64,000 bases of DNA, taken from assembly GCA_021295815.1 (NCBI GenBank), contig JAGWBQ010000001.1:87165-151164 (forward strand), given 5' to 3'. The position numbers were made by a program, and so were the translations under genes. Positions 5,286 to 42,634 of this stretch are shown piece after piece. Source of the DNA: Gemmatimonadota bacterium. GTDB lineage: Bacteria > Gemmatimonadota > Gemmatimonadetes > Longimicrobiales > Gaopeijiaceae. Numbering within the stretch: the first letter of the stretch is position 1; every line of letters starts with the position of its first letter. The notes under the pieces are model-generated. The model worked only from the letters and a program-made list of their open reading frames with translations, had not been told where the DNA came from and did not search any database.

Positions 5286-5327
5286 AGGCTTCAACCGGGG
5301 CTGGCGCGACCGATCAGAACAAGCCTC
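5285..5327 (+). terminator. Candidate stem-loop after the AKR-RidA gene
   Basis: The sequence GAGGCTT at 5285-5291 is the exact reverse complement of AAGCCTC at 5321-5327, with a 29-base loop. It begins on the last base of the AKR-RidA stop codon and lies upstream of the propeller gene. There is no T-tract, so a factor-independent terminator is only possible. Confidence 0.3.
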
Positions 5328-5337
5328 CAAGATCCGG

Positions 5338-5371
5338 TATACTGATGTCGCGGAAAACGACCGAACTACCT
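5338..5371 (+). promoter_or_regulatory. Candidate -10 box plus a leader block shared with 21373-21417
   Basis: TATACT at 5338-5343 matches five of six sigma-70 -10 bases; no convincing -35 is seen at 16-18 bases. The following 19-base block at 5353-5371 (gaaaacgaccgaactacct) matches 21399-21417 at 16 of 19 positions. Both blocks lie behind a -10-like hexamer and ahead of an ATG, so this may be a shared leader element. Confidence 0.3.
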
Positions 5372-5402
5372 ACCTGAACCGCCACGGGGGCAGGACCGCA
5401 CC

Positions 5403-6683: not shown

Positions 6684-6684
6684 A

Positions 6685-6716
6685 GGGGTCTCCCGGCACC
6701 ACAAGCGCCGGACCCC
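6685..6716 (+). terminator. Candidate imperfect terminator hairpin after the propeller gene
   Basis: Two bases after the TGA, ggggtc (6685-6690) and cggc (6694-6697) can pair with gccg (6707-6710) and gacccc (6711-6716), giving a ten-pair GC-rich stem with a three-base bulge. No clear T-run follows, so function is uncertain. Confidence 0.4.
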
Positions 6717-6821
6717 CGCCGAAGGTTATCTTGCGACCATCGGACCGGACCCGGGCCCGAACTTGGTAGTACTGCGCCGGCTCTCCGGTTCGACCGGCGA
6801 ACCTATCTCGAGGCCACCTGA

Positions 6822-15082: not shown

Positions 15083-16482
15083 AGCTCATCACCGGAAAAA
15101 GCCTTCCCCGCCGGACCTTCCTGAAGGGCGTGGGCGCCACCGTCGCGCTGCCCTTCCTCGACGCGATGATCCCCGCCGGGGGCGCGTTCGCCAGACGGCG
15201 ACTCAAGGCGCACCCGACCCGCCTCGTCTGCATCGAGGAGGTTCACGGCCTCGCCGGCTGCAACGAGTGGGCCGCCACCCGGCACCTCTTCGCTCCCGAG
15301 ACCACCGGTAGCGGCTTTGAGATCATCGACGAGAGCGCCCTCGCTCCCCTGCGTCCGTTTCAGGACCACCTGACCGTCGTCAGCAACACCGACGTGCGCA
15401 TGGCCGAGGCCTTCACTCCTCCCGAGATCGGAGGGGACCACTTCCGCTCCAGCGCCGTCTTCCTGACCCAGTCGCATCCCAAGCAGACCCAGGGATCGGA
15501 CATCTGGTGCGGAACCTCGATCGACCAGATCTACGCCCAGCACTTCGGCGGCGACTCGCCGATGCCTTCCATGCAGCTCTGCATCGAGAAGCTCGACCAG
15601 GCGGGCGGCTGCACCTACAACTACTCCTGCGCCTACACCGACTCGATCTCGTGGGCCTCCCCCAATGAGCCGCTCCCGATGATCCGCGACCCCAGGGTGG
15701 CGTTCGACATGCTCTTCGGGAGCGGAGGTTCGCCCGAGGAGCGCGACGCCAGACGGCGGGCCCGCGGCAGCGTTCTCGACTGGATCGCCGAGGAGGCGGC
15801 GGCTCTCGGGAAGGAGCTCGGCATGGAGGACCAGAGGCGCATGGACCGCTACCTCCAGCACGTGCGCGAGCTGGAACGGCGCATCCAGCGCATCGAGACT
15901 CGCAACTCCAGCGGCGAGGAGCGGGCTCTGCCCGAAGCTCCGGCAGGGGTCCCGGACTCCTTCACCGAGCACATGCAGGCGATGTTCGATCTCCAGATCC
16001 TCGCCCTCCAGAGCGACATGACCCGGGTCATTTCCTTCAAGACCGGACGCGACGCGCAGAACCGCGTCTTCCCGGAGAGCGGCTCGGATCGTCCCTTCCA
16101 CCCCGCGTCGCACCACGGCGGGCGCGAAGAGAACGTGCTTGAATTCAACAAGATCTGTCAGTACCGGGTCGGGCAGCTTCCGTACTTCCTGAACAAGCTC
16201 AAGGAGACGATGGAGGAGGACGAGAGCCTGCTCGACCGCACGGCCGTCATCTGGGGATCCCCCATGGCCGACGCCAACCTGCACAATCACCGACGCTGCC
16301 CCCTGGTCCTGCTCGGGCGCGGCAACGGCGTGCTCACCGGCGATCGGCACATCAAGGCGCCCGACGGTACGCCCATGGCCAACGCCATGCTCGCGCTGGT
16401 TCGCGAGATGGGCCTTCCGATCGACCAGTTCGGGGACTCGACGGGCGAGCTCTCGCTGACTCAGGCGGGAGTCACGGGTTGA
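15079..16482 (+). CDS. Cassette 1 HXXSHH (DUF1552) protein, Tat-exported
   Basis: The 467-residue product starts with a Tat signal (LPRRTFLKGVGATVALPFLD, RR at 11-12) and belongs to the DUF1552/HXXSHH family. The name-giving motif is H341-P-A-S344-H345-H346 in FHPASHHGG. Other conserved blocks are GGDHFRSSAVFLTQ near 118, CIEKLDQAGGC near 174, RIQRIETRN near 273, and HNHRRCPLVLLG near 410. The family resembles DUF1501 and alkaline-phosphatase-like folds in its His/Asp/Ser pattern, so a metal-dependent hydrolase is possible, but no activity is established. Family members are often encoded next to PSD cytochromes. ATG 15079 overlaps the cytochrome stop, and the stop at 16482 overlaps the start of the ankyrin gene. 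The signal and fold suggest export in folded form. Confidence 0.92.
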   Translation: MKLITGKSLPRRTFLKGVGATVALPFLDAMIPAGGAFARRRLKAHPTRLVCIEEVHGLAGCNEWAATRHLFAPETTGSGFEIIDESALAPLRPFQDHLTVVSNTDVRMAEAFTPPEIGGDHFRSSAVFLTQSHPKQTQGSDIWCGTSIDQIYAQHFGGDSPMPSMQLCIEKLDQAGGCTYNYSCAYTDSISWASPNEPLPMIRDPRVAFDMLFGSGGSPEERDARRRARGSVLDWIAEEAAALGKELGMEDQRRMDRYLQHVRELERRIQRIETRNSSGEERALPEAPAGVPDSFTEHMQAMFDLQILALQSDMTRVISFKTGRDAQNRVFPESGSDRPFHPASHHGGREENVLEFNKICQYRVGQLPYFLNKLKETMEEDESLLDRTAVIWGSPMADANLHNHRRCPLVLLGRGNGVLTGDRHIKAPDGTPMANAMLALVREMGLPIDQFGDSTGELSLTQAGVTG

Positions 16483-18491
16483 CGGGGGTGCGGGACTCGA
16501 TCTCGGCTGGAACGCGGCTGCAGCCGGCCAGGCTGGGCAGCATCTTCGCCGTCTTGGCGGTGGTCGTCGCCGCTCTCGCCGCCACGGGGATCGATACGCC
16601 CGTGGCCGATGCGGCCATGCGGGGAGACATCGAGTCGATTCGCCGGCTTCTGGCCGACGGAGCCGACGTCAACGCGGCTCACGGAGACGGCATGAGCGCG
16701 CTGCACTGGGCCGCTCGGCACGGCGATCCCGATATGGCCGCCATGCTGCTGGCCGCCGGGACGCGGATCGACGCCGACACCCGGGTGGGCGGCTACACCC
16801 CTCTCCACCTCGCGGCGGAAGGCGGCAACGGCGCGGTCGCGCGCCTGCTGGTCGAGGAGGGGGCGGACGTGAGCGCGACCACCACCCCGGGTGGGACCCA
16901 GCCCATCCACTTGGCCGCCGGTGCGGGCGATGTCGCCTCCATCGAAGCGCTGCTCGCAGGCGGGGCCGACCCCGATGCCCGGGAGCTCGCCGCCGGACAG
17001 ACTCCGCTCGTCTTCGCCGCCGCGCACGACCGGGCCGAGGCGATCACGGCCCTGCTCGCCGCCGGCGCCGATCCGGAGCTGAGGACGAACCTGGTCGATC
17101 TCGAAGCGCTCCGGGAGCTCGACCGGGAGGCATCTCAGCGCCAGCGGGAAGCGCTCGAGGCTCTGACCGGAGGCGAACGCTCGCCGACCGCCGGTGAGCT
17201 CCACGCCGCTGTGCGCGCCGGACGCACGGTCTACGCCGCGGCCGCGAAAGCCGATACCGGCAGTTCCGACGACGAGTCCCAGGCGGCCACCCTCGACAGG
17301 CGCGGAGGCCTGACCCCGCTGCTGCACGCGGCCCGCCAGGGCAACACCAGAGCGGCCATCGCCCTTCTCGACGGCGGCGCGGACGTCGACGGGACGAGCG
17401 CGAGCGACGACACCTCGCCTCTGCTCATGGCGACCATCAACGGCCAGTTCGATCTGGCCGTGCTGCTGGCCGAGAGAGGCGCGGACCCCAATCTGGAGTC
17501 GACGCTGAACGGCGTGCGTCCGCTTTGGGCCGCCGTCAACGCCCGCTGGCAACCGCGCACACGGTATCCGCAGCCCCAGGAGATGGGCCTTCAGAAGGCG
17601 ACCTATCTCGACCTGGCCGAGGTCTTGCTCGAAGCCGGGGCCGACCCCGACGCCCGCCTCTCCATGCACCCCTGGTACATGGTCTACAGCGGTTGCGGCA
17701 ATCGGAACTGCGGTCTCGTCGACACCAAGGGCTCGACCGCCTTCTGGCGGGCCGCCTACGCCACCGACGTCGACGCGATGAGGCTGCTCGTCGCCTGGGG
17801 AGCGGACCCCGAAATACCGACCGCCGCACCGCCGACCCGCCGCAGGCGCACACCCGACGAGTTCCTGCGCGAGCAGGCCAAGGAACGCCTGCGCACCGAC
17901 ACCACGTTCGCATCGCTGGGCGATTCGGCGAGAGCATCCCTCATGATCTCGGTCCGAGCGGAGCTCCCGGACTCGCTCCAGGCCGTCTTCCCCGAGGAAG
18001 CTCTTGCGGCCGACCCGGCCGGACAGCGCGACGAGTTCCTACTCGCCGTCGCCTTCGCCGACTCGCTGCGCGCGCTCGAACGCGATCCTTCCGGTCTACC
18101 TCCGGTGCCTGCCGGAGGACCGGGAGTTTTCGCCGTACACGCGGTCAGCGGCGTGGGATACGGCGAAGGATTTGCCGGCAACGCCCATCGCCATGCGCCG
18201 GACGGCTGGATGCCGGCCCTGCGTTACCTGGTCGAGGAGCTCGGGGCCGACGTCAACCGCCGCGATCACAACGGCTACAACGCCGTCCACCACGCTGCGG
18301 CCAGAGGTGACAACGAGATGATCCTCTACCTGCTCGCGGGCGGCGCCGACCTCATGGCGGTGAGCAGACGCGGACAGACCACGGTGGACATGGCGAACGG
18401 GCCCGTTCAGCGGGTATCGCCCCACCCGGTCACGGTCGCCCTGCTCGAGGCCCTCGGAGCGAAGAACAACCACCGCTGCGTGACGTGCTGA
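16479..18491 (+). CDS. Cassette 1 secreted ankyrin-repeat protein with C-terminal NNHxCxxC
   Basis: The 670-residue protein has a short basic N-terminus and a hydrophobic signal (IFAVLAVVVAALAATG), followed by about ten ankyrin repeats in three blocks (roughly 45-205, 270-400 and 585-650). Between the last blocks lie a cysteine-containing insert (CGNRNCG, near 407) and a charged alpha-helical region of about 80 residues. The chain ends in NNHRCVTC, matched by NNHNCMSC at the end of the cassette 2 paralogue. Ankyrin repeats bind proteins, so a scaffold for the cytochrome and the HXXSHH protein is a reasonable inference. The start is TTG 16479, overlapping the previous stop, or GTG 16488. Export of an ankyrin protein is unusual in bacteria. 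Confidence 0.9.
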   Translation: MTGVRDSISAGTRLQPARLGSIFAVLAVVVAALAATGIDTPVADAAMRGDIESIRRLLADGADVNAAHGDGMSALHWAARHGDPDMAAMLLAAGTRIDADTRVGGYTPLHLAAEGGNGAVARLLVEEGADVSATTTPGGTQPIHLAAGAGDVASIEALLAGGADPDARELAAGQTPLVFAAAHDRAEAITALLAAGADPELRTNLVDLEALRELDREASQRQREALEALTGGERSPTAGELHAAVRAGRTVYAAAAKADTGSSDDESQAATLDRRGGLTPLLHAARQGNTRAAIALLDGGADVDGTSASDDTSPLLMATINGQFDLAVLLAERGADPNLESTLNGVRPLWAAVNARWQPRTRYPQPQEMGLQKATYLDLAEVLLEAGADPDARLSMHPWYMVYSGCGNRNCGLVDTKGSTAFWRAAYATDVDAMRLLVAWGADPEIPTAAPPTRRRRTPDEFLREQAKERLRTDTTFASLGDSARASLMISVRAELPDSLQAVFPEEALAADPAGQRDEFLLAVAFADSLRALERDPSGLPPVPAGGPGVFAVHAVSGVGYGEGFAGNAHRHAPDGWMPALRYLVEELGADVNRRDHNGYNAVHHAAARGDNEMILYLLAGGADLMAVSRRGQTTVDMANGPVQRVSPHPVTVALLEALGAKNNHRCVTC

Positions 18492-30161: not shown

Positions 30162-30674
30162 ATGATGAACCAAGCCCCCAGCCCCTTCCCGGCCCTCGCC
30201 GCCCTCGTGTTCTTCGCCGCCGCCTGCGCATCCGACGCCGACGAGGGGGAGCCGATGGGCGACGTCGTGGAGGAATCGGCGCCTGCCACCGTGACCATCA
30301 CCTCGCCCGCCGAGGGCGACACGGTCGATCCCGGACCGTTGACGGTTACCATGACCGTCACCGGCGTCTCGATCGTTCCGGCCGGCGACACCACCTCGGG
30401 AACCGGCCATCACCATCTCTATCTCGACGCCGATGTCGATGACGTCACCGTGCCGGTGCCCACCGTGCCGGGAAGCATCGTCCACATGGGCGACGCCAGC
30501 TCGCAGTTCACCTTCGAGGAGGTCGGCCCGGGCGAGCACAGGCTGATCGCCATAGTCGCCGACGGTGTCCACGTCCCGCTCCGGCCGCTGGTGGTGGACA
30601 CGGTGCATTTCGTGGTCACGAACGCCGTCGACGTTCAAATCGCTCCCTTCGGGGTCGACTCGGTTGTGAGGTGA
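30162..30674 (+). CDS. DUF4399 lipoprotein
   Basis: The 170-residue product has a lipobox signal (LVFFAAACAS). The mature part contains one DUF4399 domain: VTITSPAEGDTV, then GTGHHHLYLD with three adjacent histidines, and FEEVGPGEHRLIAIVADG. The fold is a small immunoglobulin-like beta-sandwich, and the HHH run suggests metal binding, but no function is established. ATG 30162 and ATG 30165 are adjacent and equivalent. It stands alone between the serine hydrolase and cassette 2, followed by an inverted repeat that may end its transcript. Confidence 0.85.
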   Translation: MMNQAPSPFPALAALVFFAAACASDADEGEPMGDVVEESAPATVTITSPAEGDTVDPGPLTVTMTVTGVSIVPAGDTTSGTGHHHLYLDADVDDVTVPVPTVPGSIVHMGDASSQFTFEEVGPGEHRLIAIVADGVHVPLRPLVVDTVHFVVTNAVDVQIAPFGVDSVVR

Positions 30675-30815: not shown

Positions 30816-33413
30816 ATGAAAAGATACCTCCCGCTCGCCTTGGCGCTGGGGATTTTCCTGGTTCTCCTCGGGCAGTCGAGCCACCTCGGTAGCGGCGCGA
30901 GCCTGCGAGACTCTCTCGATCCGACCGTGGTGGCGGCCACCCCGGACGGTGCGCCGCAGACCGGGGCAGTCGTCCGCGGCGTGTCCGACGAGCCGGGCCT
31001 CGGTCCGCAGGGTTCGGCCGGCGTCGTGACGACGCCCGCTGAAGCCGTTCCGACCGGGTCGTCGTCCCCGGCGGCGCATTTCTCGACGCCGCCTTCCGTC
31101 GACGAGGCTCTGAACGAGGTCGTTCGGTCGTACTGCGTTCGCTGCCACAGCGATCGAAGGCTTCTCGGCAACATGTCGCTCGAGGAGTTCGACGTCGCGC
31201 GCCCCGAACTCGCCGGCGAGCTGGCTGAGAAGATGATCCACAAGCTCCGTGCCGGAATGATGCCCCCGCGGAGTGCGCGCCAGCCGAGCGAAGACACCCT
31301 GGTCCTGCTCGCCGACCAACTCGAGAACACCCTCGACGCGATCGCCCGCAGCAACCCCAACCCGGGACGTCGGACCTTCCAACGTCTGGTTCGCGCCGAG
31401 TACGAAGCTGCGGTGAACGAGCTCTTCGGACTCGATATCGACGCCTCCGCCTTCCTCCCCACCGAGACCCTCTCGGAGAACTTCGACAACATCGCCGACA
31501 TGCAGTTGCTCTCGGCGACGCTGATGGAGGGCTACCTGAGGGCGGCGGCCTTCGTGGCCAGGGCGGCGGTCGGAGACCCGGACGCCACCCCGGCCTCGTC
31601 GGTCTACAAGGTGGCGAAAACCCTCTCCCAGGTCGGCCACGTCGAAGGCGCGCCGCTCGGCACCAGAGGCGGCACCTCGGTCGTGCACAACTTCCCCGCC
31701 GACGGCGACTACGTATTCGAGCTCGACCTGCATCCCGAGCCCACGGGCAATCTCTACGGCCTGACCGCCGGCGACGGCGAACAGCTCGAGGTCTCGATCA
31801 ACGGCGAACGGGTCGCCCTCTTCGATCTCGATCGCTGGATGTCCGAAGCCGATCCCACCGGTCTGCGCCTGGAGACCCCGCCGATTCACGTGCGCGCCGG
31901 TCCCCATAGGGTGTCGGCGGCGTTCGTGCAGCGCTTCGAAGGGCCGGTCGTCGATCTTCTGACGCCGGTCGACTACACCCTCGCGGACTCGCAGATCGGC
32001 ACCGCCTACGGCATCACCACCGTTCCGCACCTCCGCGACCTCACCATCTCCGGTCCTTTCCGGGTCACGGGCGTCTCGGAGACGCCGGCCCGCCGTCGCA
32101 TCTTCACCTGTCGCCCCACCTCGCTGGAGGAGGAGCGTCCCTGCGCCGAACGCATAATCGGGAACCTGGCCCGTCGCGCCTACCGCAGACCTCTGGAAGA
32201 CGGGGAGACGTCCGCTCTGATGGTCTTCTACGATCAGGGCCGGGAGGAAGGCGGTTTCGAGGTCGGCGTTCGCACCGCCCTCCAGGCGATTCTGGCTTCG
32301 CCCCACTTCACTTTCCGCATCGAAGAGGTGCCTGCGGGAGTGGCTCCCGGCGAAAAGTACCCGATCGCACCTTACGACATCGCGTCCCGACTCTCGTTCT
32401 TCCTCTGGGGTTCGCCTCCCGACGACGTGCTCATCGACGCGGCCGCGAGAGGGAAGCTTTCGGAACCCGACGAACTCGAGGCGCAGGCTCGGCGCATGCT
32501 GGCCGACCCCAGGGCCGAAGCGCTGGCCACACGCTTCGCGGCTCAGTGGTTCCGGCTCCAGGACCTTGAGAAGATCCACCCCGACGCCCAGCTCTACCCG
32601 TACTACGATCACACCCTCGCGGAGGCGATGGAGCGCGAGACCGAGCTCCTCTTCCACCACATCGTGACCGAGGACCGGAGCATATTCGACGTGATCACGG
32701 CGGACTACACCTTCGTGAACGAGCGGCTCGCCGATCACTACGGCTTCCCCGATGTCGTCGGATCGCACTTCCGCCGGGTGCCGGTCGAAGACCCGAACCG
32801 ACACGGCGTCACGGGTCACGGCTCGGTGCTCATGATGACCTCGCACGCGGACCGAACCTCGCCCGTCCTGCGTGGCAAGTGGGTGCTGGAGGTCCTCCTC
32901 GGGAGCCCGCCTCCGCCGCCTCCGCCCGACGTTCCCGCATTCGAGGAGACCGACGCCGCCACCGACGGTCAGGAGCTCTCCACCCGGCTGCGCATGGAGC
33001 AGCACCGCGCCAACCCGTCGTGCACGTCGTGCCACAACGTCATCGACCCCATCGGACTCGCCCTCGACAACTTCGACGTGACCGGAGCCTGGCGCATCAA
33101 GGAGCACGGAATGCCGATCGACGCGACCGGCATGCTCTACGACGGGACTCCCCTCGCCTCGCCCGTCGATCTGCGGAACGCGATCCTCGCTCGCCCTTCG
33201 GTCTACGTGCGCACCTTCACCCGCAACCTCATGGCCTATGCGCTCGGACGACGGGTCGAATACTTCGACATGCCTACCGTCCGGCAGATAGAGCGGGCCG
33301 CGAAAGCCAACGACCACCGGGTCACCGACTACATCATCGGCATCATCCGCAGTCCGGCGTTCAGGCTGGCCGTGGCCGAAGACCATACCGACGATCACGA
33401 AGACGAATACTGA
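30816..33413 (+). CDS. Cassette 2 cytochrome: planctomycete-type PSCyt/PSD protein
   Basis: The 865-residue paralogue of 12461-15082 has a signal anchor (LPLALALGIFLVLLG), a low-complexity spacer, and the haem c site CVRCH with C107, C110 and H111. The domain order is the same: DUF1587 (about 180-245), a beta-rich domain, DUF1595 from RIFTCRPTS (about 425), DUF1592 from ASRLSFFLWG (about 523), DUF1588 with the GSPPPPPPPDVP linker and the second site CTSCH (C736, C739, H740), and DUF1585. The C-terminus is rich in His and Asp (EDHTDDHEDEY), which copy 1 lacks, and might bind a metal. The DUF1595-1585 part is highly similar to copy 1, while the spacer and beta-rich domain have diverged. Confidence 0.9.
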   Translation: MKRYLPLALALGIFLVLLGQSSHLGSGASLRDSLDPTVVAATPDGAPQTGAVVRGVSDEPGLGPQGSAGVVTTPAEAVPTGSSSPAAHFSTPPSVDEALNEVVRSYCVRCHSDRRLLGNMSLEEFDVARPELAGELAEKMIHKLRAGMMPPRSARQPSEDTLVLLADQLENTLDAIARSNPNPGRRTFQRLVRAEYEAAVNELFGLDIDASAFLPTETLSENFDNIADMQLLSATLMEGYLRAAAFVARAAVGDPDATPASSVYKVAKTLSQVGHVEGAPLGTRGGTSVVHNFPADGDYVFELDLHPEPTGNLYGLTAGDGEQLEVSINGERVALFDLDRWMSEADPTGLRLETPPIHVRAGPHRVSAAFVQRFEGPVVDLLTPVDYTLADSQIGTAYGITTVPHLRDLTISGPFRVTGVSETPARRRIFTCRPTSLEEERPCAERIIGNLARRAYRRPLEDGETSALMVFYDQGREEGGFEVGVRTALQAILASPHFTFRIEEVPAGVAPGEKYPIAPYDIASRLSFFLWGSPPDDVLIDAAARGKLSEPDELEAQARRMLADPRAEALATRFAAQWFRLQDLEKIHPDAQLYPYYDHTLAEAMERETELLFHHIVTEDRSIFDVITADYTFVNERLADHYGFPDVVGSHFRRVPVEDPNRHGVTGHGSVLMMTSHADRTSPVLRGKWVLEVLLGSPPPPPPPDVPAFEETDAATDGQELSTRLRMEQHRANPSCTSCHNVIDPIGLALDNFDVTGAWRIKEHGMPIDATGMLYDGTPLASPVDLRNAILARPSVYVRTFTRNLMAYALGRRVEYFDMPTVRQIERAAKANDHRVTDYIIGIIRSPAFRLAVAEDHTDDHEDEY

Positions 33414-33459
33414 ACGAAGACCGGATCGGGACCCACGCATCCTCACTCTCGAAAATGAC

Positions 33460-34851
33460 ATGAAGCACCTCTCCAACATCCACATCCCGCGCCGCACCTT
33501 CCTGCGGGGCGTGGGAGCCTCGGTTGCCCTCCCCCTCCTCGACGCCATGGTGCCCGCCCGGGGCGCATGGGCCAGCTTGAGCGGCGAGCTCGGCAAGACC
33601 CGGTTCGTCGGCATCGAGATGGTGCACGGCGCTGCGGGCGTCAACGAGTGGGGGGCCACCCGGAACCTCTGGAATCCGGCCGCAACCGGTCGGAATTTCG
33701 ATCTCGGTCCGACGAGCCTCCAGCCGCTCGAAGGTTTCAGGGACTACCTGACCGTCATCTCCAACACCGATGTGGAGAACGCCGAGGCGAAGACGCCGCG
33801 CGAGATCGGCGGCGACCACTTCCGCTCCAGCGCCGTCTTCCTGACACAGGAGCACCCGCGCCAGACCGAGGGCTCCGATGTTCAGGTGGGAACGTCGATG
33901 GACCAGCTCTACGCGCAGCGGCTCGGAGACCAGACCCCCATCCCGTCCATGCAGCTCTGTATCGAGAACGTCGATCAGGCGGGCGGATGCGCCTACGGCT
34001 ACGCGTGCGTCTATACCGACACCATAAGCTGGGCGTCTCCCACCGAACCTCTGCCCATGATCCGCGACCCCCGCATCGCCTTCGACCAGCTCTTCGGCGC
34101 GGGCACCACCCCCGAGGACCGGGCTCTGCGCAGGCGGACGGATCGCAGCATCCTCGACTGGATCGCGACCGAAGCGACATCGCTCAAGAGGCAGCTCGGG
34201 CCAGAGGATCGGCGGCGCATCGACCGCTATCTCGACAACATTCGCGAGATCGAGGGGCGCATCCAGAGGATCGAGACCCGCAACCGGAGCGGCGAGACCC
34301 GGCAGTTGGCCGGAGCCCCCGCCGGCGTGCCCGACGACTTCGAGGAGCACGTCAAGCTTATGTTCGACATTCAGGTGCTCGCCTTCGAGTCGGACATGAC
34401 CAGGGTCTTCACCTTCAAGATGGGACGGGACGCCTCGGGCCGCGTCTACCCGGGCAGCGGGATCGACGTCGGCTTCCACAACGCGTCGCACCACGGAGGG
34501 CAGCCCGAGCGGGTTACCCAGTTCGCCGAGATCAACAGGTACCACGTCTCGCTGCTGCCGTACTTCCTTCAGAAGCTCAAGGACACACCCGTCGGCGACT
34601 CGAACCTCCTCGAGCAGACTCTGATCGCCTACGGCTCGCCGATGGGCGACTCCAACCTCCACAACCACAAGCGCTGCCCGCTCTTCCTGATCGGCGGCGC
34701 CAACGGTCAGCTTCCGATGGGCGGAGCGCACCTGAAGGCGGCGGACGGCACCCCGATGGCCAACGTCATGCTTTCGATGCTGCACATGTTGGGAGCGGAA
34801 GACATCGACAGCTTCGGCAACAGCGACGGTCACTTCTCCTTCAGCGTCTGA
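33460..34851 (+). CDS. Cassette 2 HXXSHH (DUF1552) protein, Tat-exported
   Basis: The 463-residue paralogue of 15079-16482 has the Tat signal IPRRTFLRGVGASVALPLLD and the motif H340-N-A-S343-H344-H345 in FHNASHHGG. Shared blocks include GGDHFRSSAVFLTQ, CIENVDQAGGC, SWASPTEPLPMIRDPR and HNHKRCPLFLIGG. Unlike cassette 1, it is separated from the cytochrome gene by 46 bases and has no clear ribosome site. The function is unknown for the family; a metal-dependent hydrolase working with the cytochrome is inferred from the conserved pairing. Confidence 0.92.
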   Translation: MKHLSNIHIPRRTFLRGVGASVALPLLDAMVPARGAWASLSGELGKTRFVGIEMVHGAAGVNEWGATRNLWNPAATGRNFDLGPTSLQPLEGFRDYLTVISNTDVENAEAKTPREIGGDHFRSSAVFLTQEHPRQTEGSDVQVGTSMDQLYAQRLGDQTPIPSMQLCIENVDQAGGCAYGYACVYTDTISWASPTEPLPMIRDPRIAFDQLFGAGTTPEDRALRRRTDRSILDWIATEATSLKRQLGPEDRRRIDRYLDNIREIEGRIQRIETRNRSGETRQLAGAPAGVPDDFEEHVKLMFDIQVLAFESDMTRVFTFKMGRDASGRVYPGSGIDVGFHNASHHGGQPERVTQFAEINRYHVSLLPYFLQKLKDTPVGDSNLLEQTLIAYGSPMGDSNLHNHKRCPLFLIGGANGQLPMGGAHLKAADGTPMANVMLSMLHMLGAEDIDSFGNSDGHFSFSV

Positions 34852-34867
34852 TCCGGGAGGGCAGCTC

Positions 34868-36844
34868 GTGAACAAGCGTCTTCACATCGTCATGGCGGCC
34901 GTGCTCACCATGACCGCAACAACCGCGTGGGTGGATTCCCCTGTCGCCGACGCCGCCTCCAAGGGAGATCTCTCCGAGGTCAGGGAACTGCTTCGCCGGG
35001 GAGCGGACGTCAACGCCGCGCAGGGAGACGGGATGACCGCGCTCCACTGGGCCTCTATGCGAGGTGACGTGGAGATGACCGAGGTGCTGCTCTACGCCGG
35101 GGCCGTCACTGGGGTGGCCACCCGGCTGGGGGACAACACCCCGCTTCATCTCGCCGCCCGGAACGGAAACGCGGCCGTTACCCAAATCCTGCTCGAAGCC
35201 GGGGCGGATCCTGCAGCGCGAACCTCGACCGGAGTGACCCCGCTGCACCTGGCAGCACGGGCCGGGAACGCGGACGGCGTGGCGCACATTCTCGCCGCCG
35301 GGGTGGAAGTGGACGCGGTCGAGAACGGTTTCGGCCAGTCTCCGCTCCACTGGGCCGCCGCCGCCAACCGGGTAGGTGCGATGCGTCACCTCATCGCTGC
35401 GGGAGCCGATGTCGAGCTCGCCACCGAGATGATCGACTACCAGCTCATCTCATCTCTCGACGGCGCCGACCGCCGGAGCCGGCAGGAGCTCGCGGTGGCC
35501 TCGCGCGAAGCGGCCAAGGCGGCCGAAGAGCGCAGGCGACAGCTCACCGGCGAGACCCCGGCGGAGGATGAGGTCGAACCCGAGCCCGAAGCGACCGGGT
35601 CGGGCGAAGCGGACGGCGAGCCGGAGGAGCCGGCCGAGGAGGAGGATGCGGCCGACGAGGATGGAGACGACGAGGACGACCCGGCGGAGGAGGCGGCGGA
35701 CGATGAGGAGGAAGACGAGGACCAGCCCAACGAGGACGAAGACGACGAGGATTCCCGGAATCAGCAGGGATCGGACCGCATTCCCGGCGGCGCCACCCAG
35801 AGCACCGGTGGAACGACCGGAGGCTCGAGGACGGGCACCGCTCAGACGGAACGTCCGCTCTCCTACAACGACCTGGTCGGACGAGAGGGCGGTCTGACCG
35901 CGCTCCACTTCGCGGCTCGCGAGGGCCACGTGGAGGCCTCGCAGGCCCTGCTCGAGGCGGGAGCCGACGTCGACCACCCTTCCGGCGACGGCACCACGCC
36001 GATTCTGACGGCGATCGTGAACGGAAATTACGATCTGGCCGCCCGTTTCCTCGAATCCGGGGCCGACCCCAACCTGGTGAGCGAGGACGGAGTCGCTCCT
36101 CTATTCGCGGCCTTGAACAACCGCTGGGCTCCGAAGGCGTTCTATCCGCAGCCCACCGCCTTCAAGCAGCAGGTCACGTCCTATCTGGATCTGATGGAGC
36201 TTCTGCTCGAAGCCGGCGCCGACGTGAATCAGCGGACAGGCCGCCACGTCTGGTACACCTCCTACAACTTCGACATCCTGGGTGTGAAGTTCGATGGCGC
36301 GACGGCCTTCTGGCGCGCGGCCTACGCCACCGACATTCCGGCGATGGAGCTCCTGGCGGCGTGGGGAGCCGATCCGCACATTCCCACACGCAAGACTCCT
36401 AGCCGGCGCAGGTACGGAGGTGGAGGCGAGCAGGTCGATCCTTCCGGGCTGCCCCCGACGCCCAACGGCGGACCGGCGGTCCATCCCATCCACGCGGCCA
36501 GCGGCGTGGGCTACGGGGTTGCCCGCGCGGGCAATTCCCATCGCCACGTCCCCGACGGCTGGCTTCCCGCAGTGCGCTACCTGGTCGAAGTGCACGGCTC
36601 CGACGTAAACGTACGCGACCAGGACGGATACTCCGCCGTTCACCACGCCGCGGCGCGGGGCCACAACGAGCTCATCCGCTATTTGGTCGAGAAGGGAGCC
36701 GACGTCTCCTTCGTCAGCCGACGCGGGCAGACCTCGGTGGACATGGCTAACGGCCCTCAGCAGCGCGTACAGCCGTTCCCCGAGACGATCGCGCTTCTCG
36801 AAGGGCTCGGAGCCCGCAACAACCACAACTGCATGAGCTGCTGA
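34868..36844 (+). CDS. Cassette 2 secreted ankyrin-repeat protein with acidic insert and NNHxCxxC end
   Basis: The 658-residue product starts at GTG 34868, seven bases behind GGGAGG. A signal peptide (HIVMAAVLTMTATTAW) is followed by five ankyrin repeats (about 25-190), a very acidic, repeat-like insert of about 85 residues (about 230-315, mostly Glu/Asp), three more repeats (about 335-420), and a C-terminal block of about three repeats. The protein ends in NNHNCMSC, like the copy 1 protein, and shares HWASMRGD/HWAARHGD, TAFWRAAYATD and the SGVGYG...GNSHRHVPDGW segment with it. The acidic insert replaces nothing similar in copy 1. A scaffold role is inferred. The stop overlaps the next gene by one base. 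Confidence 0.9.
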   Translation: MNKRLHIVMAAVLTMTATTAWVDSPVADAASKGDLSEVRELLRRGADVNAAQGDGMTALHWASMRGDVEMTEVLLYAGAVTGVATRLGDNTPLHLAARNGNAAVTQILLEAGADPAARTSTGVTPLHLAARAGNADGVAHILAAGVEVDAVENGFGQSPLHWAAAANRVGAMRHLIAAGADVELATEMIDYQLISSLDGADRRSRQELAVASREAAKAAEERRRQLTGETPAEDEVEPEPEATGSGEADGEPEEPAEEEDAADEDGDDEDDPAEEAADDEEEDEDQPNEDEDDEDSRNQQGSDRIPGGATQSTGGTTGGSRTGTAQTERPLSYNDLVGREGGLTALHFAAREGHVEASQALLEAGADVDHPSGDGTTPILTAIVNGNYDLAARFLESGADPNLVSEDGVAPLFAALNNRWAPKAFYPQPTAFKQQVTSYLDLMELLLEAGADVNQRTGRHVWYTSYNFDILGVKFDGATAFWRAAYATDIPAMELLAAWGADPHIPTRKTPSRRRYGGGGEQVDPSGLPPTPNGGPAVHPIHAASGVGYGVARAGNSHRHVPDGWLPAVRYLVEVHGSDVNVRDQDGYSAVHHAAARGHNELIRYLVEKGADVSFVSRRGQTSVDMANGPQQRVQPFPETIALLEGLGARNNHNCMSC

Positions 36845-37758
36845 TGGCGGTAGTTCGGACCTGCGCCGGAAACGGGGGCGCGTGCCGGTCGCCTCGGGCG
36901 ATTCGGAAGATGCGCCGTGCTCTCGGAGAGCGTCTCGCCTCGGCGGCGCTCGTCCTCTGCGCCGTCCTCCTCACGCCTGGGACGCTCGCGGCGACCTGGT
37001 CGGTCATCGCCATCGACGCCGCGACCGGCAGAGTCGTGGTCGCCTCGGCCACGTGCGTGCCCCAAGGCCGTTTCGCCGGATTCCCCGCGCTTGGACTCAT
37101 GGATGTCCAGGCCATCGTGGTCCCCGGCATCGGCGTGGCCGCCGCGCAAGCCGGAGTCGACAACACCCGCCGCAACCAATGGCTCATCTTCCGCCAAATG
37201 CAGGCGGGCACGCCGCCCTCCGAGATCATCGACCTGCTCAGGGCGGACCCCGGCCTGGAACGTCGCCAGTTCGGCATCGTCGACATGAGGGGCAGATCGG
37301 CGGGCTTCAGCGGAAGTCGCAACGGCGCCGCCTCGCTCGACGTGCAGGGCCAGGTGCCCGGCACCGCCGTCCACTACTCCGTCCAAGGCAACATCCTCGC
37401 CGCCGACAGCGTGGTACACGACGCCGCGCGGGCGCTGATCGAGGGCGGGCCGACCCTCGCCGACCGGGTCATGGCGGCGATGGAGGCTGCTGATCGGGCC
37501 GGTGGAGACAGCCGCTGCACCTGCGAGAGCGAACCCGTCGTTCCGGACGTACCCTGCACGGGGAAGACGTCCCACGTAGCCTACATTCTAGAAGCTCTTC
37601 CGTCCGATCCGAACGGGGTTTCGTTCAACGACGGCGACTACCACATGTACATATCCGCCACCGACCAGGACATCGTTCCGGGCGAAGACGCCAACCCCGT
37701 CATCACCCTCAGACGTCGGTACGAGACGTGGAAGTCGGATCAGGAGGCCGGAGGCTAA
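36844..37758 (+). CDS. DUF1028 (Ntn-hydrolase-like) protein, exported
   Basis: The 304-residue product begins either at ATG 36844, overlapping the ankyrin stop, or at ATG 36910, which gives a typical signal peptide (LASAALVLCAVLLTPGTLAATWS). The DUF1028 domain (about 55-235) has the usual pattern TWSVIAIDAATGRVVVASATC, ALGLMDVQAIVVPGIGVAAAQAGVD cut here to its core IVVPGIGVAAAQA, and VQGNILA. The family is related to Ntn hydrolases and is proposed to be peptidase-like; activity is not established. A C-terminal extension of about 65 residues contains three cysteines (CTCESE, PCTGK). Close spacing ties it to cassette 2. Confidence 0.88.
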   Translation: MAVVRTCAGNGGACRSPRAIRKMRRALGERLASAALVLCAVLLTPGTLAATWSVIAIDAATGRVVVASATCVPQGRFAGFPALGLMDVQAIVVPGIGVAAAQAGVDNTRRNQWLIFRQMQAGTPPSEIIDLLRADPGLERRQFGIVDMRGRSAGFSGSRNGAASLDVQGQVPGTAVHYSVQGNILAADSVVHDAARALIEGGPTLADRVMAAMEAADRAGGDSRCTCESEPVVPDVPCTGKTSHVAYILEALPSDPNGVSFNDGDYHMYISATDQDIVPGEDANPVITLRRRYETWKSDQEAGG

Positions 37759-37768
37759 GGCGGCAACC

Positions 37769-38728
37769 ATGACGTCATTCATCGAAATTCCCAACCGAAG
37801 AAGGTTCAGGTTCGGGGTCGATGGAAGACTGGACAGGTGGGATCCTGACCGCAGATCGGTGGTCGCGCAGGGCGGACTGGTCAGTTCGCGATCCCTCGTT
37901 ACGGGCGTTCTTCTCCTGGCGGGGATCTTGCTTCCTGGAACTGTCGTGGCCGGTCTCCTTCACGCCCAGAACCCGCTCGGCATCATCAGCGATCGTGGAC
38001 TGACGGCGACTCCGGTTTACGAGGGCTGGTATCCGAACCCGGACGGTACGGTGACCCTGTCTTTCGGCTACTACAATCGGAACCGCGCCGAGACGCTCGA
38101 CATCGAACACGGCCCCGACAACTTCATGGAGCCGGCGGAACTCGACGGCGGCCAGCCAACTCACCTGCGGCCCGGCCGGCACTGGGGCGTGTTCGGCGTG
38201 CGGGTGCCTGCGGACTACGAGGGCAAGGTCATCTGGACCATCAAGGTCAGAGGGGACACCTTCTCCATTCCCGGGCATCTCCATGACGACTGGAAGATCG
38301 ACGCCCTCGAGGGCGAAGCAACTACCGGCAATCGACCGCCGATGCTCGGATTCGGCGGCGAGCGAGGCGCCGGACCCGGCGGCATCTTCGGACCGGAGTT
38401 GAGCGGAACCGTGGGCGACCCCCTGACGATGCGGGTCTGGACGAGCGACGACGGGTTGCAGTCGGGCAGCGTGGGAGGGCTCGGCAGGTCCGACGTCCCG
38501 GTCACCCTCACCTGGTTCGAACACTCGGGGCCGGGAAACGTCACCTTCGACCCGGTTTCGGCGGAGATCCCCGTCGAGGGGGGCTGGATGGAGACGATGG
38601 CGGAATTCGACGCACCCGGAGTCTACGTGCTTCGAGTGCGCGCAAACGACGTGTCCGGCGTCAGAAGCGCAGGTCACGCACAATGTTGTTGGAGCAACGG
38701 CTTCGTGAGAGTAACGATCGGCCGTTGA
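37769..38728 (+). CDS. Exported conserved hypothetical with C-terminal vicinal cysteines
   Basis: The 319-residue product has a long basic N-terminus and a signal-anchor segment (about 43-66, LVTGVLLLAGILLPGTVVAG). The mature part is beta-rich (YEGWYPNPDGTVTLSFGYYNRN, LRPGRHWGVFGVRVP, KVIWTIKVRGDT, then VTLTWFEHSGPG), which suggests immunoglobulin-like or cupredoxin-like sandwiches, and it ends with GHAQCCWSNGFVRVTIG. The vicinal CC pair near 306-307 is its most marked feature. I do not recognise a named family. It lies 22 bases before the cytochrome c/PHM-like gene and such proteins are probably functional partners; redox or metal handling is a guess. Confidence 0.65.
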   Translation: MTSFIEIPNRRRFRFGVDGRLDRWDPDRRSVVAQGGLVSSRSLVTGVLLLAGILLPGTVVAGLLHAQNPLGIISDRGLTATPVYEGWYPNPDGTVTLSFGYYNRNRAETLDIEHGPDNFMEPAELDGGQPTHLRPGRHWGVFGVRVPADYEGKVIWTIKVRGDTFSIPGHLHDDWKIDALEGEATTGNRPPMLGFGGERGAGPGGIFGPELSGTVGDPLTMRVWTSDDGLQSGSVGGLGRSDVPVTLTWFEHSGPGNVTFDPVSAEIPVEGGWMETMAEFDAPGVYVLRVRANDVSGVRSAGHAQCCWSNGFVRVTIGR

Positions 38729-38750
38729 TCGCCGGAACCAAGGAGCGAAC

Positions 38751-40109
38751 ATGTACCGTACCATAACGACGGCAGCGCTGGCCATTCTGACGCTGGCCGG
38801 CGGCGCCGACGCCCAGATCGGAGGACCTACCAACGACGACGCAGACGAAATCACCTACGCCCGCGACGTCGCTCCCATCGTCAACGAGAAGTGCGCGGCC
38901 TGCCACCAGGAAGGTTCGATAGCTCCGTTCTCGCTGCTCACCTACGAGGACGCGAAAAGGTACTCCCGCCAGATCAGGCAGCGGGTCGCCGAGCGCATCA
39001 TGCCGCCGTGGCACATCGACCGGACCGTGGGCATCCAGGAGTTCAAGAACGACCGCGGTCTCACCGACGAGCAGATCGAGACCGTCGTCGGTTGGATCGA
39101 CAACGGCATGCCTTTCGGCGACGAGGCCGACCTGCCGGAGCCGCCGACGCTGCCGGACCCGGACGCCTGGCAGATGGCGAGCGATTTCGGAGGAGAACCC
39201 GACCTGGTAATTCCGAGCGCGAAGTACACCCTCGAAGCCGTCACGCAGGACAAGTGGTACCGGCCCGCCACACCCACCGGACTCACCGAGGCGCGCTGGG
39301 CCAAGGCCATCGAGATCCGTCCGGTCGGCAAGCAGGCTCGCCAGGTGATGCACCACGTGCTCACCTACCTGCGCCAGGACGAGGCGAACGACCCCATGGC
39401 CGAGGCCCGCACCACCTCGCGCAGAGCCATGGGCGGCCCAGGCCTCTTCATGGAATGGGCGGTCGGAAAGCGCGGCGAGGTTTTCCCGGAGGGTGCGGGC
39501 AAGCTCATGCTGCCGGGCTCGACGATCACCTGGGAGCTCCACATGCACGCCATCGGCGAGATCGTGGAGGACGTCCAGGTCGAGCTGGGAGTCTGGTTCT
39601 ACGACAAGGGGGACGAGCCCCGCAACCGCACGCGGCTGCGCATGTTCGACGGCAGGGGCCGCAACAGCCTGGACATCCCGCCCGGCGAGATCGCGGTCAC
39701 GCAGCAATACCACACCCTGCGCTGGCCGGCGCGTCTGGAGAATTTCCAGCCCCACATGCACATGCGCGGCAAGGCCATGCGCATGGAAGCGGTCCTGCCA
39801 AACGGTCGCACCGAGATCCTAAGCCAGGTGAACGACTTCCAGTGGCAGTGGCACGTCAACTACATCTACGCGGACCACGCCGCGCCGCTCCTGCCCGCCG
39901 GAACCATGGTCGTCATCACCGCATGGCACGACAACACTCCCGATAACCCCAACAATCCGGATCCCACCCAGTGGGTCGGCTGGGGTGATCGCACGGTCGA
40001 CGAGATGGCTCACGCCTGGGTGGACGTGACCTACCTCAGCGAAGAGGAGTTCCAGGCCGAGGTGGCCAAGCGTCAGGCCGAGACCGAGAAGGCTTCCGAG
40101 AGGAGGTGA
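38751..40109 (+). CDS. Cytochrome c / copper type II monooxygenase-like (PHM fold) protein
   Basis: The 452-residue product starts five bases behind AAGGAG and has a signal peptide (residues 1-21). The haem c site CAACH (C48, C51, H52) lies in a small cytochrome domain (about 35-115; MPPWH near 83-87 is a likely axial-ligand region). Residues about 170-420 resemble the PHM/dopamine-beta-hydroxylase-like copper fold: QVMHHVL near 202, ELHMHAIGE near 263 and FQPHMHMRGKAMRME near 335 are the candidate copper-ligand blocks. A periplasmic copper-haem oxidase or oxygenase is a reasonable inference, and the neighbouring PSD cytochromes would fit a shared electron-transfer chain. Its substrate is unknown. 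Confidence 0.82.
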   Translation: MYRTITTAALAILTLAGGADAQIGGPTNDDADEITYARDVAPIVNEKCAACHQEGSIAPFSLLTYEDAKRYSRQIRQRVAERIMPPWHIDRTVGIQEFKNDRGLTDEQIETVVGWIDNGMPFGDEADLPEPPTLPDPDAWQMASDFGGEPDLVIPSAKYTLEAVTQDKWYRPATPTGLTEARWAKAIEIRPVGKQARQVMHHVLTYLRQDEANDPMAEARTTSRRAMGGPGLFMEWAVGKRGEVFPEGAGKLMLPGSTITWELHMHAIGEIVEDVQVELGVWFYDKGDEPRNRTRLRMFDGRGRNSLDIPPGEIAVTQQYHTLRWPARLENFQPHMHMRGKAMRMEAVLPNGRTEILSQVNDFQWQWHVNYIYADHAAPLLPAGTMVVITAWHDNTPDNPNNPDPTQWVGWGDRTVDEMAHAWVDVTYLSEEEFQAEVAKRQAETEKASERR

Positions 40110-40168
40110 AGGACCGGTACCGGAAGGTCGGAGAGTCTCGACGCGCTCTCGGATCCGGGGCGGAAGCC

Positions 40169-41170
40169 ATGCACTCCGCACTTCGGAAGCCGGTCCTGGC
40201 GCTCGCCGCCTTCCCTCTCGCATGCGGAGCCCCCGGCGACGAAGCCCTCCCGGAGGCCGTGACCGATCCGGCGGCGACGTACGCCGAACGCCATTCGGCC
40301 GATCCGACGGCGCGCGGCTACACCGAGGCGGATTTTCCGCGCGTCCAGGAGCTTGCCTCGGGAGTCTATTCCTACGAGGCTCTTCGTTCCGCCGGAGAGG
40401 AACGGTTCACCACCGTCAGCTTCTTCGTGGTTACCGATGAAGGCGTGCTGGTGGCCGACGGGCAGGGTAGCGTGGACGAGACCGCCCGGCTCGTGGATCG
40501 CATCGCCGAAGTCACCAACAAGCCGATCACCCATGTGGTCGTCTGCTCCGACCACGGCGACCACACCGCCGGCAACGCCGCCTTTCCCGAGGGCGTCGAG
40601 TTCATCGCCCATTCCTACTCGGCGGGAATGCTCGAGCGCAGGGCGAACGACCCTCTCCGCCCCGACGAAACGCCCCCGATTCCGCTCGCGACTCGGCTCG
40701 TGGAGGAGGCGACAACACTGACATTGGGTGGCCGAACCATCGAGATCCTCCACCTCGGACGCGCCCACACGGGCGGCGACCTCGTCGTGCACCTTCCCGT
40801 CGAGAGAATTCTCTTCATGAGCGAGGCCTATCTGCACGGAGTCTTTCCCGCGATGCGTTCGGCCTATCCGAGCGAGTGGGTGGCGATGATCGAACGGGCA
40901 CAGGCTCTGGGAGCGGAGATGATCGTGCCGGGCCACGGATTCGTGGACGACGCCGCGATCCTGGCCGAGGGACTGGAGCAGTTCCGAGGCGCGGTGGCGC
41001 AGGTGATCGCCGAGGTCTCTCGCCTCTACCACGACGGATTCAGTCTGGAGAACGCGCAGGCGACGGTCGATTTCGGGGATCTCGCCGAGTGGTCGCTGTA
41101 CGACAGCCAGGCCGACAGGGCCGTGGCGCAGGTTTATCGGGAGCTGGACGGGGAGCTGGGAAGCGATTAG
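40169..41170 (+). CDS. MBL-fold metallo-hydrolase lipoprotein with altered HxHxDH motif
   Basis: The 333-residue product starts at ATG 40169, which gives a lipobox signal (LALAAFPLACG, Cys19). An upstream GTG at 40106 is less likely because a strong GAGGAGG site directly abuts it. The metallo-beta-lactamase fold shows SDHGDH at 127-132, with Ser in place of the first His of HxHxDH; later ligands look intact (RAHTGGD near 214, VPGHGF near 274). The change may alter the Zn1 site, as Asn or Gln does in some MBL classes. SoxH/quinoprotein-relay-like MBL proteins are common near cytochrome clusters. It closes the possible seven-gene unit begun by cassette 2. Confidence 0.85.
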   Translation: MHSALRKPVLALAAFPLACGAPGDEALPEAVTDPAATYAERHSADPTARGYTEADFPRVQELASGVYSYEALRSAGEERFTTVSFFVVTDEGVLVADGQGSVDETARLVDRIAEVTNKPITHVVVCSDHGDHTAGNAAFPEGVEFIAHSYSAGMLERRANDPLRPDETPPIPLATRLVEEATTLTLGGRTIEILHLGRAHTGGDLVVHLPVERILFMSEAYLHGVFPAMRSAYPSEWVAMIERAQALGAEMIVPGHGFVDDAAILAEGLEQFRGAVAQVIAEVSRLYHDGFSLENAQATVDFGDLAEWSLYDSQADRAVAQVYRELDGELGSD

Positions 41171-41380
41171 GAGATGTCAGTGGGTGGTCGGGACTACGAC
41201 ACGGAGTTCTTCCGCGGTCTCCCGTAACGACCGACCTTCCCAGAAGACGGGGCCGGTTCGGAAGCGCATGTCCGGGGTATCCCCGCCCCACACCGCGCCC
41301 GGTCGGGCCGACGTGCCCGTGGGCCGGACGCGCTTCGCTTCCTCCCGGTGTCTCGCGCACCCACCCGCAGACGACTAGCC

Positions 41381-42634
41381 ATGCGAGCCGTCACCTTCAA
41401 CATCACCGTTCCCTCCTTCCTGGTGAGCAAGGCGCTTGGGCGCCTCACCAATTCCGCAGTCTTCGGGGCTCTGAGCGGGCTGCGCTACTGCGAGGTCGAC
41501 GCCCCCGCGCCACCGGCGGACGACTGGGCGCGCATCGACGTGACCCGTGCGGGCATCTGCGGAACCGATCTTGGCAATCTCGCCCTCAAGGCCAGCCCCA
41601 TTCTCGAGCCCTTCGGCTCGTTCCCCGCGGTTCTGGGCCACGAGGTGGTCGGCAGGGTGGCGGAGGCCGGGCCCGCTTCAGGGCTCGACCCGGGCGAGCG
41701 CGTTGTCGTGGACCCGATGATCTCTTGCGCGGTTCGAGGATTCGAAGAAGCGGAGCGGTGTCCGTCATGCCGGAAGGGATTCCACTGCACCTGCGAACGC
41801 GCCGGAGACCCAGGGGCTCTGGAGATCGGGGGCGCACCCATGCGACCCGGTACCACGATCGGATATCACGCCTCGCTGCCCGGGGGCTGGAGCGAGTCCA
41901 TGGTCGCTCATGCGAGCCAGCTGTTCCGGCTCCCGGACTCGATCGACGACGATGCCGCAGTCATGATCGAACCTCTCGCGGTAGGCATGCACGCAGTCCT
42001 CGCTTCCAGACCCCTGGGTGCCGGACCGGTCTTGGTCATCGGCGGCGGTCCCATAGGACTCGGCGTGGTCTGGGCGCTCAGGGGCGCGGGCTACGAGGGC
42101 GAGCTGGTGGCACAAGTGAAGCGCGGTCCCGAAGCCGATCTCGCCCGCCGTCTCGGCGCGTCCGACACGGTGACTCCGGGCGATGAGGCGCGCTCGGCCT
42201 TGGTCGGCACCGGATCCAGCGCGTACATGCCGCTCGTCGGGGCCGAGGTCTTCGCAGGGGGCGGATTCCCGCTCATCTTCGACTGCGTAGGAAGTCGCCA
42301 GACCCTCGACCAGTCGCTTCGCTTCGCGAGTCCCCGCGGGCGGGTCGCGGTTCTGGGTTGCGCGGCCGCGATGCGCAAGATAGACCTGACGCTGGTGTGG
42401 GCCCGCGAGATCCGGGTCCGCGGTTTCGTCGGGTACGGCGCCGAGGAGTGGAAGGGAGGAAGGGTGCACACCTTCGACGTCGTCATCGAGATCCTGCAGG
42501 CCACCGATTCACCGGTGAGCGATCTCGTGACCCACGTGCTGCCTCTGGCCCGCTACAAGGAGGCGCTCGGTCACGCGTTCGACCGCCGCAGGAGCGGGGC
42601 GATCAAGGTCTGCTTCGATCCCAGGGCCGCTTAG
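41381..42634 (+). CDS. Zinc-binding alcohol dehydrogenase (MDR family)
   Basis: The 417-residue cytoplasmic protein is a medium-chain dehydrogenase. Catalytic zinc residues are C60 in GICGTD and GHE in LGHEVVG; a cysteine-rich loop (CPSCRKGFHCTC, about 127-138) is in the structural-zinc position, with an unusually long spacing. The nucleotide-binding motif is GGGPIGLG, near 213. The extended N-terminus (about 30 residues before the usual start of the domain) and the loop resemble threonine/sorbitol dehydrogenase relatives, but the substrate is not clear. The stop codon shares four bases with the stop of the convergent ogt gene. Confidence 0.85.
   Translation: MRAVTFNITVPSFLVSKALGRLTNSAVFGALSGLRYCEVDAPAPPADDWARIDVTRAGICGTDLGNLALKASPILEPFGSFPAVLGHEVVGRVAEAGPASGLDPGERVVVDPMISCAVRGFEEAERCPSCRKGFHCTCERAGDPGALEIGGAPMRPGTTIGYHASLPGGWSESMVAHASQLFRLPDSIDDDAAVMIEPLAVGMHAVLASRPLGAGPVLVIGGGPIGLGVVWALRGAGYEGELVAQVKRGPEADLARRLGASDTVTPGDEARSALVGTGSSAYMPLVGAEVFAGGGFPLIFDCVGSRQTLDQSLRFASPRGRVAVLGCAAAMRKIDLTLVWAREIRVRGFVGYGAEEWKGGRVHTFDVVIEILQATDSPVSDLVTHVLPLARYKEALGHAFDRRRSGAIKVCFDPRAA

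What the first reader, a model, noticed from the sequence alone, without database searches (positions are those of the whole stretch)
30816..41170. Cassette 2 may extend into a 7-gene, 10-kb periplasmic redox operon
After the cassette 2 ankyrin gene come DUF1028 (one-base overlap), a vicinal-Cys exported protein (10-base gap), a cytochrome c/PHM-like copper protein (22-base gap) and an MBL lipoprotein (59 bases with the chosen start). All seven are exported, three CXXCH sites and likely copper ligands are present. Cassette 1 has no such tail, which would separate the roles of the two copies.
Basis: partly seen in the sequence, partly recalled or inferred. Interest (0 to 1): 0.65.

Follow-up and report, generated by a model that had tools for sequence, protein, structure and literature searches.

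The report
Conserved periplasmic heme–copper gene cluster
In this Gemmatimonadota genome one of three copies of an uncharacterised cytochrome/DUF1552/ankyrin gene trio continues into four more export genes, including a heme-tethered relative of animal peptide-hydroxylating copper enzymes, and relatives keep the same genes together, so the cluster is a real unit whose chemistry is unknown.

Summary
The genes are real and collinear as described. The tail is two modules. DUF1028 and the MBL lipoprotein follow the trio in relatives: PSD-DUF1552-ankyrin-DUF1028-(creatininase)-MBL in several genera, with a 4-base DUF1028/MBL overlap in one. The vicinal-Cys and PHM-like genes form a near-obligate pair found widely in Gemmatimonadota, often in many copies. 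In one other genus the pair sits exactly between DUF1028 and MBL; in Palauibacter-type genomes it lies beside the trio in opposite orientation. The full 7-gene collinear run was seen only here. In a DUF1552 tree, cassette 2 falls in the clade holding nearly all tail-linked copies; cassette 1 and a third cassette fall outside. So the tail marks a distinct cassette type. The PHM-like protein folds like PHM/DBH (Foldseek E 5e-13) and keeps all six copper-ligand positions plus a His/Met c-type heme site. DUF1028 keeps a Thr at the predicted mature N-terminus, as in an Ntn hydrolase. Most likely role: periplasmic O2-dependent hydroxylation by a cytochrome-fed copper monooxygenase, with exported hydrolases. 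Substrate and transcription are unproven. 'Redox operon' is only partly apt, and two quoted gaps depend on doubtful start codons.

The parts
30162..30674 (+). DUF4399 exported-type protein, possible first gene of the unit (141 bases before PSD)
   Evidence: Pfam PF14347 E=1e-15; a homologue lies directly upstream of PSD in G040/L074
30816..33413 (+). PSD/PSCyt3 protein (DUF1587-1595-1592-1588-1585) with two CXXCH sites, exported
   Evidence: Pfam; sequence
33460..34851 (+). DUF1552 protein with Tat-type signal and an H-N-A-S-H-H (HXXSHH) motif
   Evidence: Pfam PF07586 E=3e-90; sequence
34868..36844 (+). Exported ankyrin-repeat protein ending in CxxC
   Evidence: Pfam; a CxxC near the C-terminus is seen in all homologues read
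36844..37758 (+). Exported DUF1028 protein (likely start 36910), predicted Ntn-hydrolase fold with Thr51 at the mature N-terminus
   Evidence: Pfam E=9e-26; 2imh E=4e-10; invariant Thr-Trp-Ser after the signal peptide in 17 of 17
37769..38728 (+). Vicinal-Cys (QCCW) exported protein, predicted Ig-like beta sandwiches; partner of the PHM-like gene
   Evidence: Invariant QCCW in 22 sequences; PHM-like homologue next to it in 28 of 30 loci; model, fold search
38751..40109 (+). c-type cytochrome fused to a PHM/DBH-fold copper monooxygenase domain
   Evidence: C48-C51-H52 and M84, H201 H202 H264 H335 H337 M419 invariant in 24; Foldseek to PHM E=5e-13
40106..41170 (+). Metallo-beta-lactamase-fold lipoprotein (likely start 40169)
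   Evidence: Pfam PF00753; invariant lipobox Cys40, SxHxDH, H221, H277
12461..18491 (+). Cassette 1 (PSD, DUF1552, ankyrin), tail-less paralogue for comparison
   Evidence: Pfam; outside the tail-linked DUF1552 clade

Best explanation
The stretch from 30816 (perhaps 30162) to 41170 is the fully collinear form of a modular periplasmic gene cluster of Gemmatimonadota. Module A is the PSD cytochrome, DUF1552 and CxxC-ended ankyrin trio together with DUF1028 and an MBL lipoprotein (an exported creatininase often joins in relatives). Module B is an autonomous vicinal-Cys/PHM-like pair lodged between DUF1028 and MBL. Shown by computation: co-localisation across genera, a distinct cassette-2 DUF1552 clade, the PHM fold with all six copper-ligand positions, and a heme c site. 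Inferred: the cluster is one transcript here; c-type cytochrome electrons (from the fused heme, possibly fed by PSD) replace ascorbate in reducing the two coppers; the copper domain hydroxylates a C-H bond of an amide- or peptide-like substrate in the periplasm using O2; DUF1028 and MBL (and creatininase in relatives) hydrolyse the products; the Ig-like vicinal-Cys protein binds substrate or the monooxygenase.
For:: trio+DUF1028+MBL in g13 and g6 and several named MAGs; DUF1028+pair+MBL in g20 (G019, G049); trio next to inverted pair, creatininase and MBL in L165, L173, L176 (L171 similar). By a simple estimate the MBL-DUF1552 linkage in 7 of 15 genera has a chance probability near 1e-7, with phylogeny not fully corrected; cassette 2 lies in a supported 28-row clade (99/88) with nearly all tail-linked DUF1552, cassettes 1 and 3 outside. 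PHM-like gene beside the vicinal-Cys gene in 28 of 30 loci; copper and heme ligand positions invariant, PHM and DBH are the top 31 structural matches; conserved Thr at the predicted mature N-terminus of DUF1028; 4-base DUF1028/MBL overlap in G045 and G012.
Against: The exact 7-gene order occurs only in this genome. In many genomes the pair or the MBL lies away from the trio: 47 of 80 MBL loci show no trio, DUF1028 or pair gene in the DNA held, although some of these contigs are short. No expression data. Pfam PHM models do not detect the protein. No biochemical evidence for PSD, DUF1552 or DUF1028 function was found; the substrate is guessed from fold and neighbours. MBL lacks the first His of the classical HxHxDH motif.
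Confidence: 0.55

Rival explanations
1. Two independent transcription units happen to abut: trio+DUF1028 (and ancestrally MBL) as one, and a mobile vicinal-Cys/PHM pair that inserted and works on its own.
For: The pair is found alone and in many copies in other genomes. DUF1028 to MBL is directly adjacent in G045 and G012 without the pair.
Against: The same position between DUF1028 and MBL is used in another genus, and the pair clusters with trio, creatininase and MBL in Palauibacter-type genomes, so the association recurs. Gaps are small and no promoter-like site was found.
Confidence: 0.3
2. The PHM-fold protein is not a monooxygenase but a heme-copper electron carrier, sensor or copper-storage protein, and the cluster serves metal or redox homeostasis.
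For: It is fused to a cytochrome c; its partner has an invariant vicinal Cys pair and the ankyrin proteins end in CxxC, which could bind metal or sense redox.
Against: Both copper sites are kept in full, including the Met of the catalytic site, and the fold matches hydroxylases.
Confidence: 0.2
3. Chance neighbourhood of unrelated secreted-protein genes.
For: These genomes carry many such families, some in multiple copies.
Against: Recurrent linkage across genera and two families, tree concordance, overlapping stop/start codons in relatives.
Confidence: 0.05

Closest known systems
Planctomycete-specific cytochrome (PSCyt3/PSD) genes with a neighbouring unknown-family gene, noted in Verrucomicrobia and Planctomycetes (PMC5615132)
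   Same: Same PSCyt/PSD domain set next to an unknown-family gene; predicted periplasmic or cytoplasmic; function unknown
   Different: Here an exported ankyrin gene, DUF1028, MBL and a PHM-type pair are added, and the relatives are Gemmatimonadota
Peptidylglycine alpha-hydroxylating monooxygenase / dopamine beta-hydroxylase
   Same: Two-domain copper monooxygenase fold and all six copper-ligand positions conserved
   Different: Fused to an N-terminal c-type cytochrome, only 12-17% identity in the structural alignments, not recognised by Pfam at E 0.01, partnered by a vicinal-Cys protein; activity untested
DUF1028 (PDB 2imh) Ntn-hydrolase-like family
   Same: Pfam match and conserved core; Thr at the mature N-terminus
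   Different: Exported, with the Thr predicted to be exposed by signal-peptide cleavage; three further invariant Cys (225, 227, 238)
Quinoprotein relay system zinc metallohydrolase (TIGR04559)
   Same: Closest NCBIfam profile to the MBL (E=6.5e-36)
   Different: Score 124 against a cut-off of 280, so not a member; SxHxDH instead of HxHxDH

Membership tests
PHM/DBH copper monooxygenases | Fold of the catalytic core | tested here: met
   Top 31 PDB matches are PHM or DBH, best E=5e-13; model pLDDT 78
PHM/DBH copper monooxygenases | Six copper ligands (rat PHM H107, H108, H172, H242, H244, M314) | tested here: met
   H201 H202 H264 H335 H337 M419 invariant in 24 sequences with similar spacing; correspondence judged by motif and spacing, not by superposed coordinates
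PHM/DBH copper monooxygenases | Recognition by the family's Pfam models (Cu2_monooxygen, Cu2_monoox_C) | tested here: not met
   Only a weak cytochrome match at E up to 0.01
PHM/DBH copper monooxygenases | O2- and reductant-dependent hydroxylase activity | not testable with these tools
   Needs biochemistry
DUF1028 | Pfam PF06267 above the curated cut-off | tested here: met
   91 bits against 26
Ntn hydrolases | Nucleophile at the mature N-terminus | tested here: inconclusive
   Invariant Thr directly after a predicted signal-peptide site; cleavage and catalysis not shown
PSCyt3/PSD proteins | DUF1587/1595/1592/1588/1585 with CXXCH | tested here: met
   and sequence
DUF1552 (HXXSHH) | Pfam match and HXXSHH motif | tested here: met
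   HNASHH in the sequence
Classical metallo-beta-lactamase-fold hydrolase | HxHxDH zinc motif | tested here: not met
   SxHxDH, Ser148 invariant in 21 sequences
One conserved 7-gene operon | Same gene order in relatives | tested here: not met
   Sub-orders are conserved, the full order was seen only here
One conserved 7-gene operon | Single transcript | not testable with these tools
   No RNA data

The most novel reading that the evidence does not exclude
The vicinal-Cys/PHM-like pair is an undescribed bacterial class of two-component copper monooxygenases whose electrons come from a fused c-type heme instead of ascorbate. It has expanded to a dozen or more paralogous pairs per genome in some Gemmatimonadota, and one ortholog has been built into a conserved PSD-DUF1552 cluster.
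Probability: 0.4. Interest if true: 0.72.

Novelty: new variant of a known kind. Interest (0 to 1): 0.52.

Why it matters
PSD/PSCyt and DUF1552 genes are abundant in uncultured aquatic and soil bacteria and have no known function. A conserved cluster that ties one type of them to a recognisable copper-monooxygenase fold and to hydrolase folds gives a testable hypothesis for their chemistry, and it points to a large set of bacterial heme-fused PHM-type enzymes that Pfam does not see.

Tried and rejected
Promoter/terminator scan found nothing above chance and is uninformative here. Sequence search of the PDB with the PHM-like profile found only cytochrome fragments and chance matches; only the fold search showed PHM. 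Fold search of the vicinal-Cys model gave only generic Ig-like matches. Creatininase is not in the window; the own genome has its best homologues as two tandem copies on another contig. The downstream zinc dehydrogenase (41348-42634) was found near relatives' clusters only as one weak distant match (L053), so it was left out. Vicinal-Cys and PHM-like profiles are unrelated. No plasmid relatives of the PHM-like protein. Literature searches gave no paper naming DUF1028, and none on bacterial heme-PHM fusions among those returned. Misassembly was considered and rejected: most junctions of the run are seen independently in other genera.

Full report
What is there. Seven co-directional genes run from 30816 to 41170. 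They encode a PSD/PSCyt3 cytochrome with two CXXCH sites, a DUF1552 protein with a Tat-type signal, an exported ankyrin protein, an exported DUF1028 protein, an exported protein without Pfam match bearing vicinal cysteines, an exported protein with a CAACH heme site, and an MBL-fold lipoprotein. A DUF4399 gene lies 141 bases upstream. The quoted gaps are partly start-codon choices: the N-terminal extensions that give the 1-base and 10-base spacings are not conserved in relatives.

The tail belongs with cassette 2, as two modules. In 98 relatives and 80 MBL loci of named genomes the gene order was mapped. Trio, DUF1028 and MBL run together in G045 and G012, where DUF1028 and MBL overlap by 4 bases. 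In G005, G040 and several named MAGs the same order holds, mostly with an exported creatininase gene (PF02633) on the opposite strand between DUF1028 and MBL. Trio and MBL without DUF1028 occur in G036, G039 and G020. DUF1028, vicinal-Cys, PHM-like and MBL run together in G019 and G049. In Palauibacter-type genomes and L165 the trio is followed by inverted PHM-like, vicinal-Cys and creatininase genes and then MBL (L165, L173, L176; L171 similar). The full collinear 7-gene order was seen only in the window's genome.

The cassette types differ. A tree of 66 DUF1552 proteins places cassette 2 in a 28-row clade (support 99/88) that holds all tail-linked copies except L093 and L133. Cassette 1 and the third cassette of this genome (contig C5, L054) lie outside it. 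The own genome gives one match each for DUF1028, vicinal-Cys, PHM-like and MBL at the thresholds used. Caveat: most tail-linked loci were found through MBL, and the comparison paralogues were a chosen sample.

The PHM-like gene and its partner. The vicinal-Cys gene has a PHM-like homologue beside it in 28 of 30 loci; one exception is a short contig. The family occurs in 54 of 200 Gemmatimonadota genomes, with up to 27 vicinal-Cys matches in one. The vicinal-Cys protein keeps QCCW in all 22 sequences, down to about 40% identity, and is predicted as Ig-like beta sandwiches. The PHM-like protein shows no PHM match in Pfam or PDB sequence searches, but its model matches PHM and DBH as the top 31 PDB hits. 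Residues H201, H202, H264, H335, H337 and M419 are invariant in 24 sequences with spacings close to rat PHM H107, H108, H172, H242, H244 and M314 (rat numbering from general knowledge). C48, C51, H52 and M84 form a plausible His/Met c-heme site.

The other tail proteins. DUF1028 matches the Ntn-like structure 2imh (the fold assignment of that entry is from general knowledge) and has an invariant Thr directly after the predicted signal peptide, as expected if signal cleavage exposes the nucleophile. The MBL has invariant SxHxDH, His221, Glu240 and His277, so the first zinc site is altered. Its nearest NCBIfam profile is the quinoprotein relay metallohydrolase 2, well below that family's cut-off.

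Mechanism. The best-supported reading is a periplasmic oxidation cluster: a copper monooxygenase reduced through its fused heme hydroxylates an amide- or peptide-like compound, and exported hydrolase-fold proteins process the product. Fold, ligands and neighbours are shown; electron source, substrate, complex formation and single transcription are inferred. An earlier survey of Verrucomicrobia noted PSCyt genes beside unknown-family genes and said nothing is known of their functions (PMC5615132). A Palauibacterales genome survey does not mention copper, monooxygenase, creatininase or ankyrin genes in its main text (PMC10469786).

Limits. No expression data; promoter scans are weak evidence; chance estimates ignore most phylogenetic dependence; structural models are of medium confidence (mean pLDDT 77-78); start codons are uncertain for three genes.

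Noticed in passing
   Followed up: yes
36830-36844 and ankyrin genes of other loci: Exported ankyrin proteins beside DUF1552 end in a conserved CxxC (NNHNCxSC), in all homologues read and in cassettes 1 and 3; a possible metal-binding or redox tail.
   Followed up: partly
30162-30674: DUF4399 lipoprotein-like gene just upstream of PSD; homologues lie directly upstream of PSD in G040 (L074) and a few kb upstream of DUF1028 in other relatives (L043, L109, L111, L113, L119).
   Followed up: partly
L073, L074, L109, L119, L134, L140, L165, L173 and others: An exported creatininase-family protein recurs on the opposite strand next to MBL, DUF1028 or the vicinal-Cys gene; in this genome its best homologues are two tandem copies on contig C8.
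   Followed up: partly
G003, G031, G038, G049, G056: Some relatives carry 14 to 27 vicinal-Cys matches, most of those examined with an adjacent PHM-like gene: a large paralogous expansion of unknown purpose.
   Followed up: partly
L043 reverse complement 945-8364: In G049 a DUF4399 gene, a large exported protein and a membrane-dipeptidase-like gene precede DUF1028-pair-MBL, hinting at peptide substrates.
   Followed up: no
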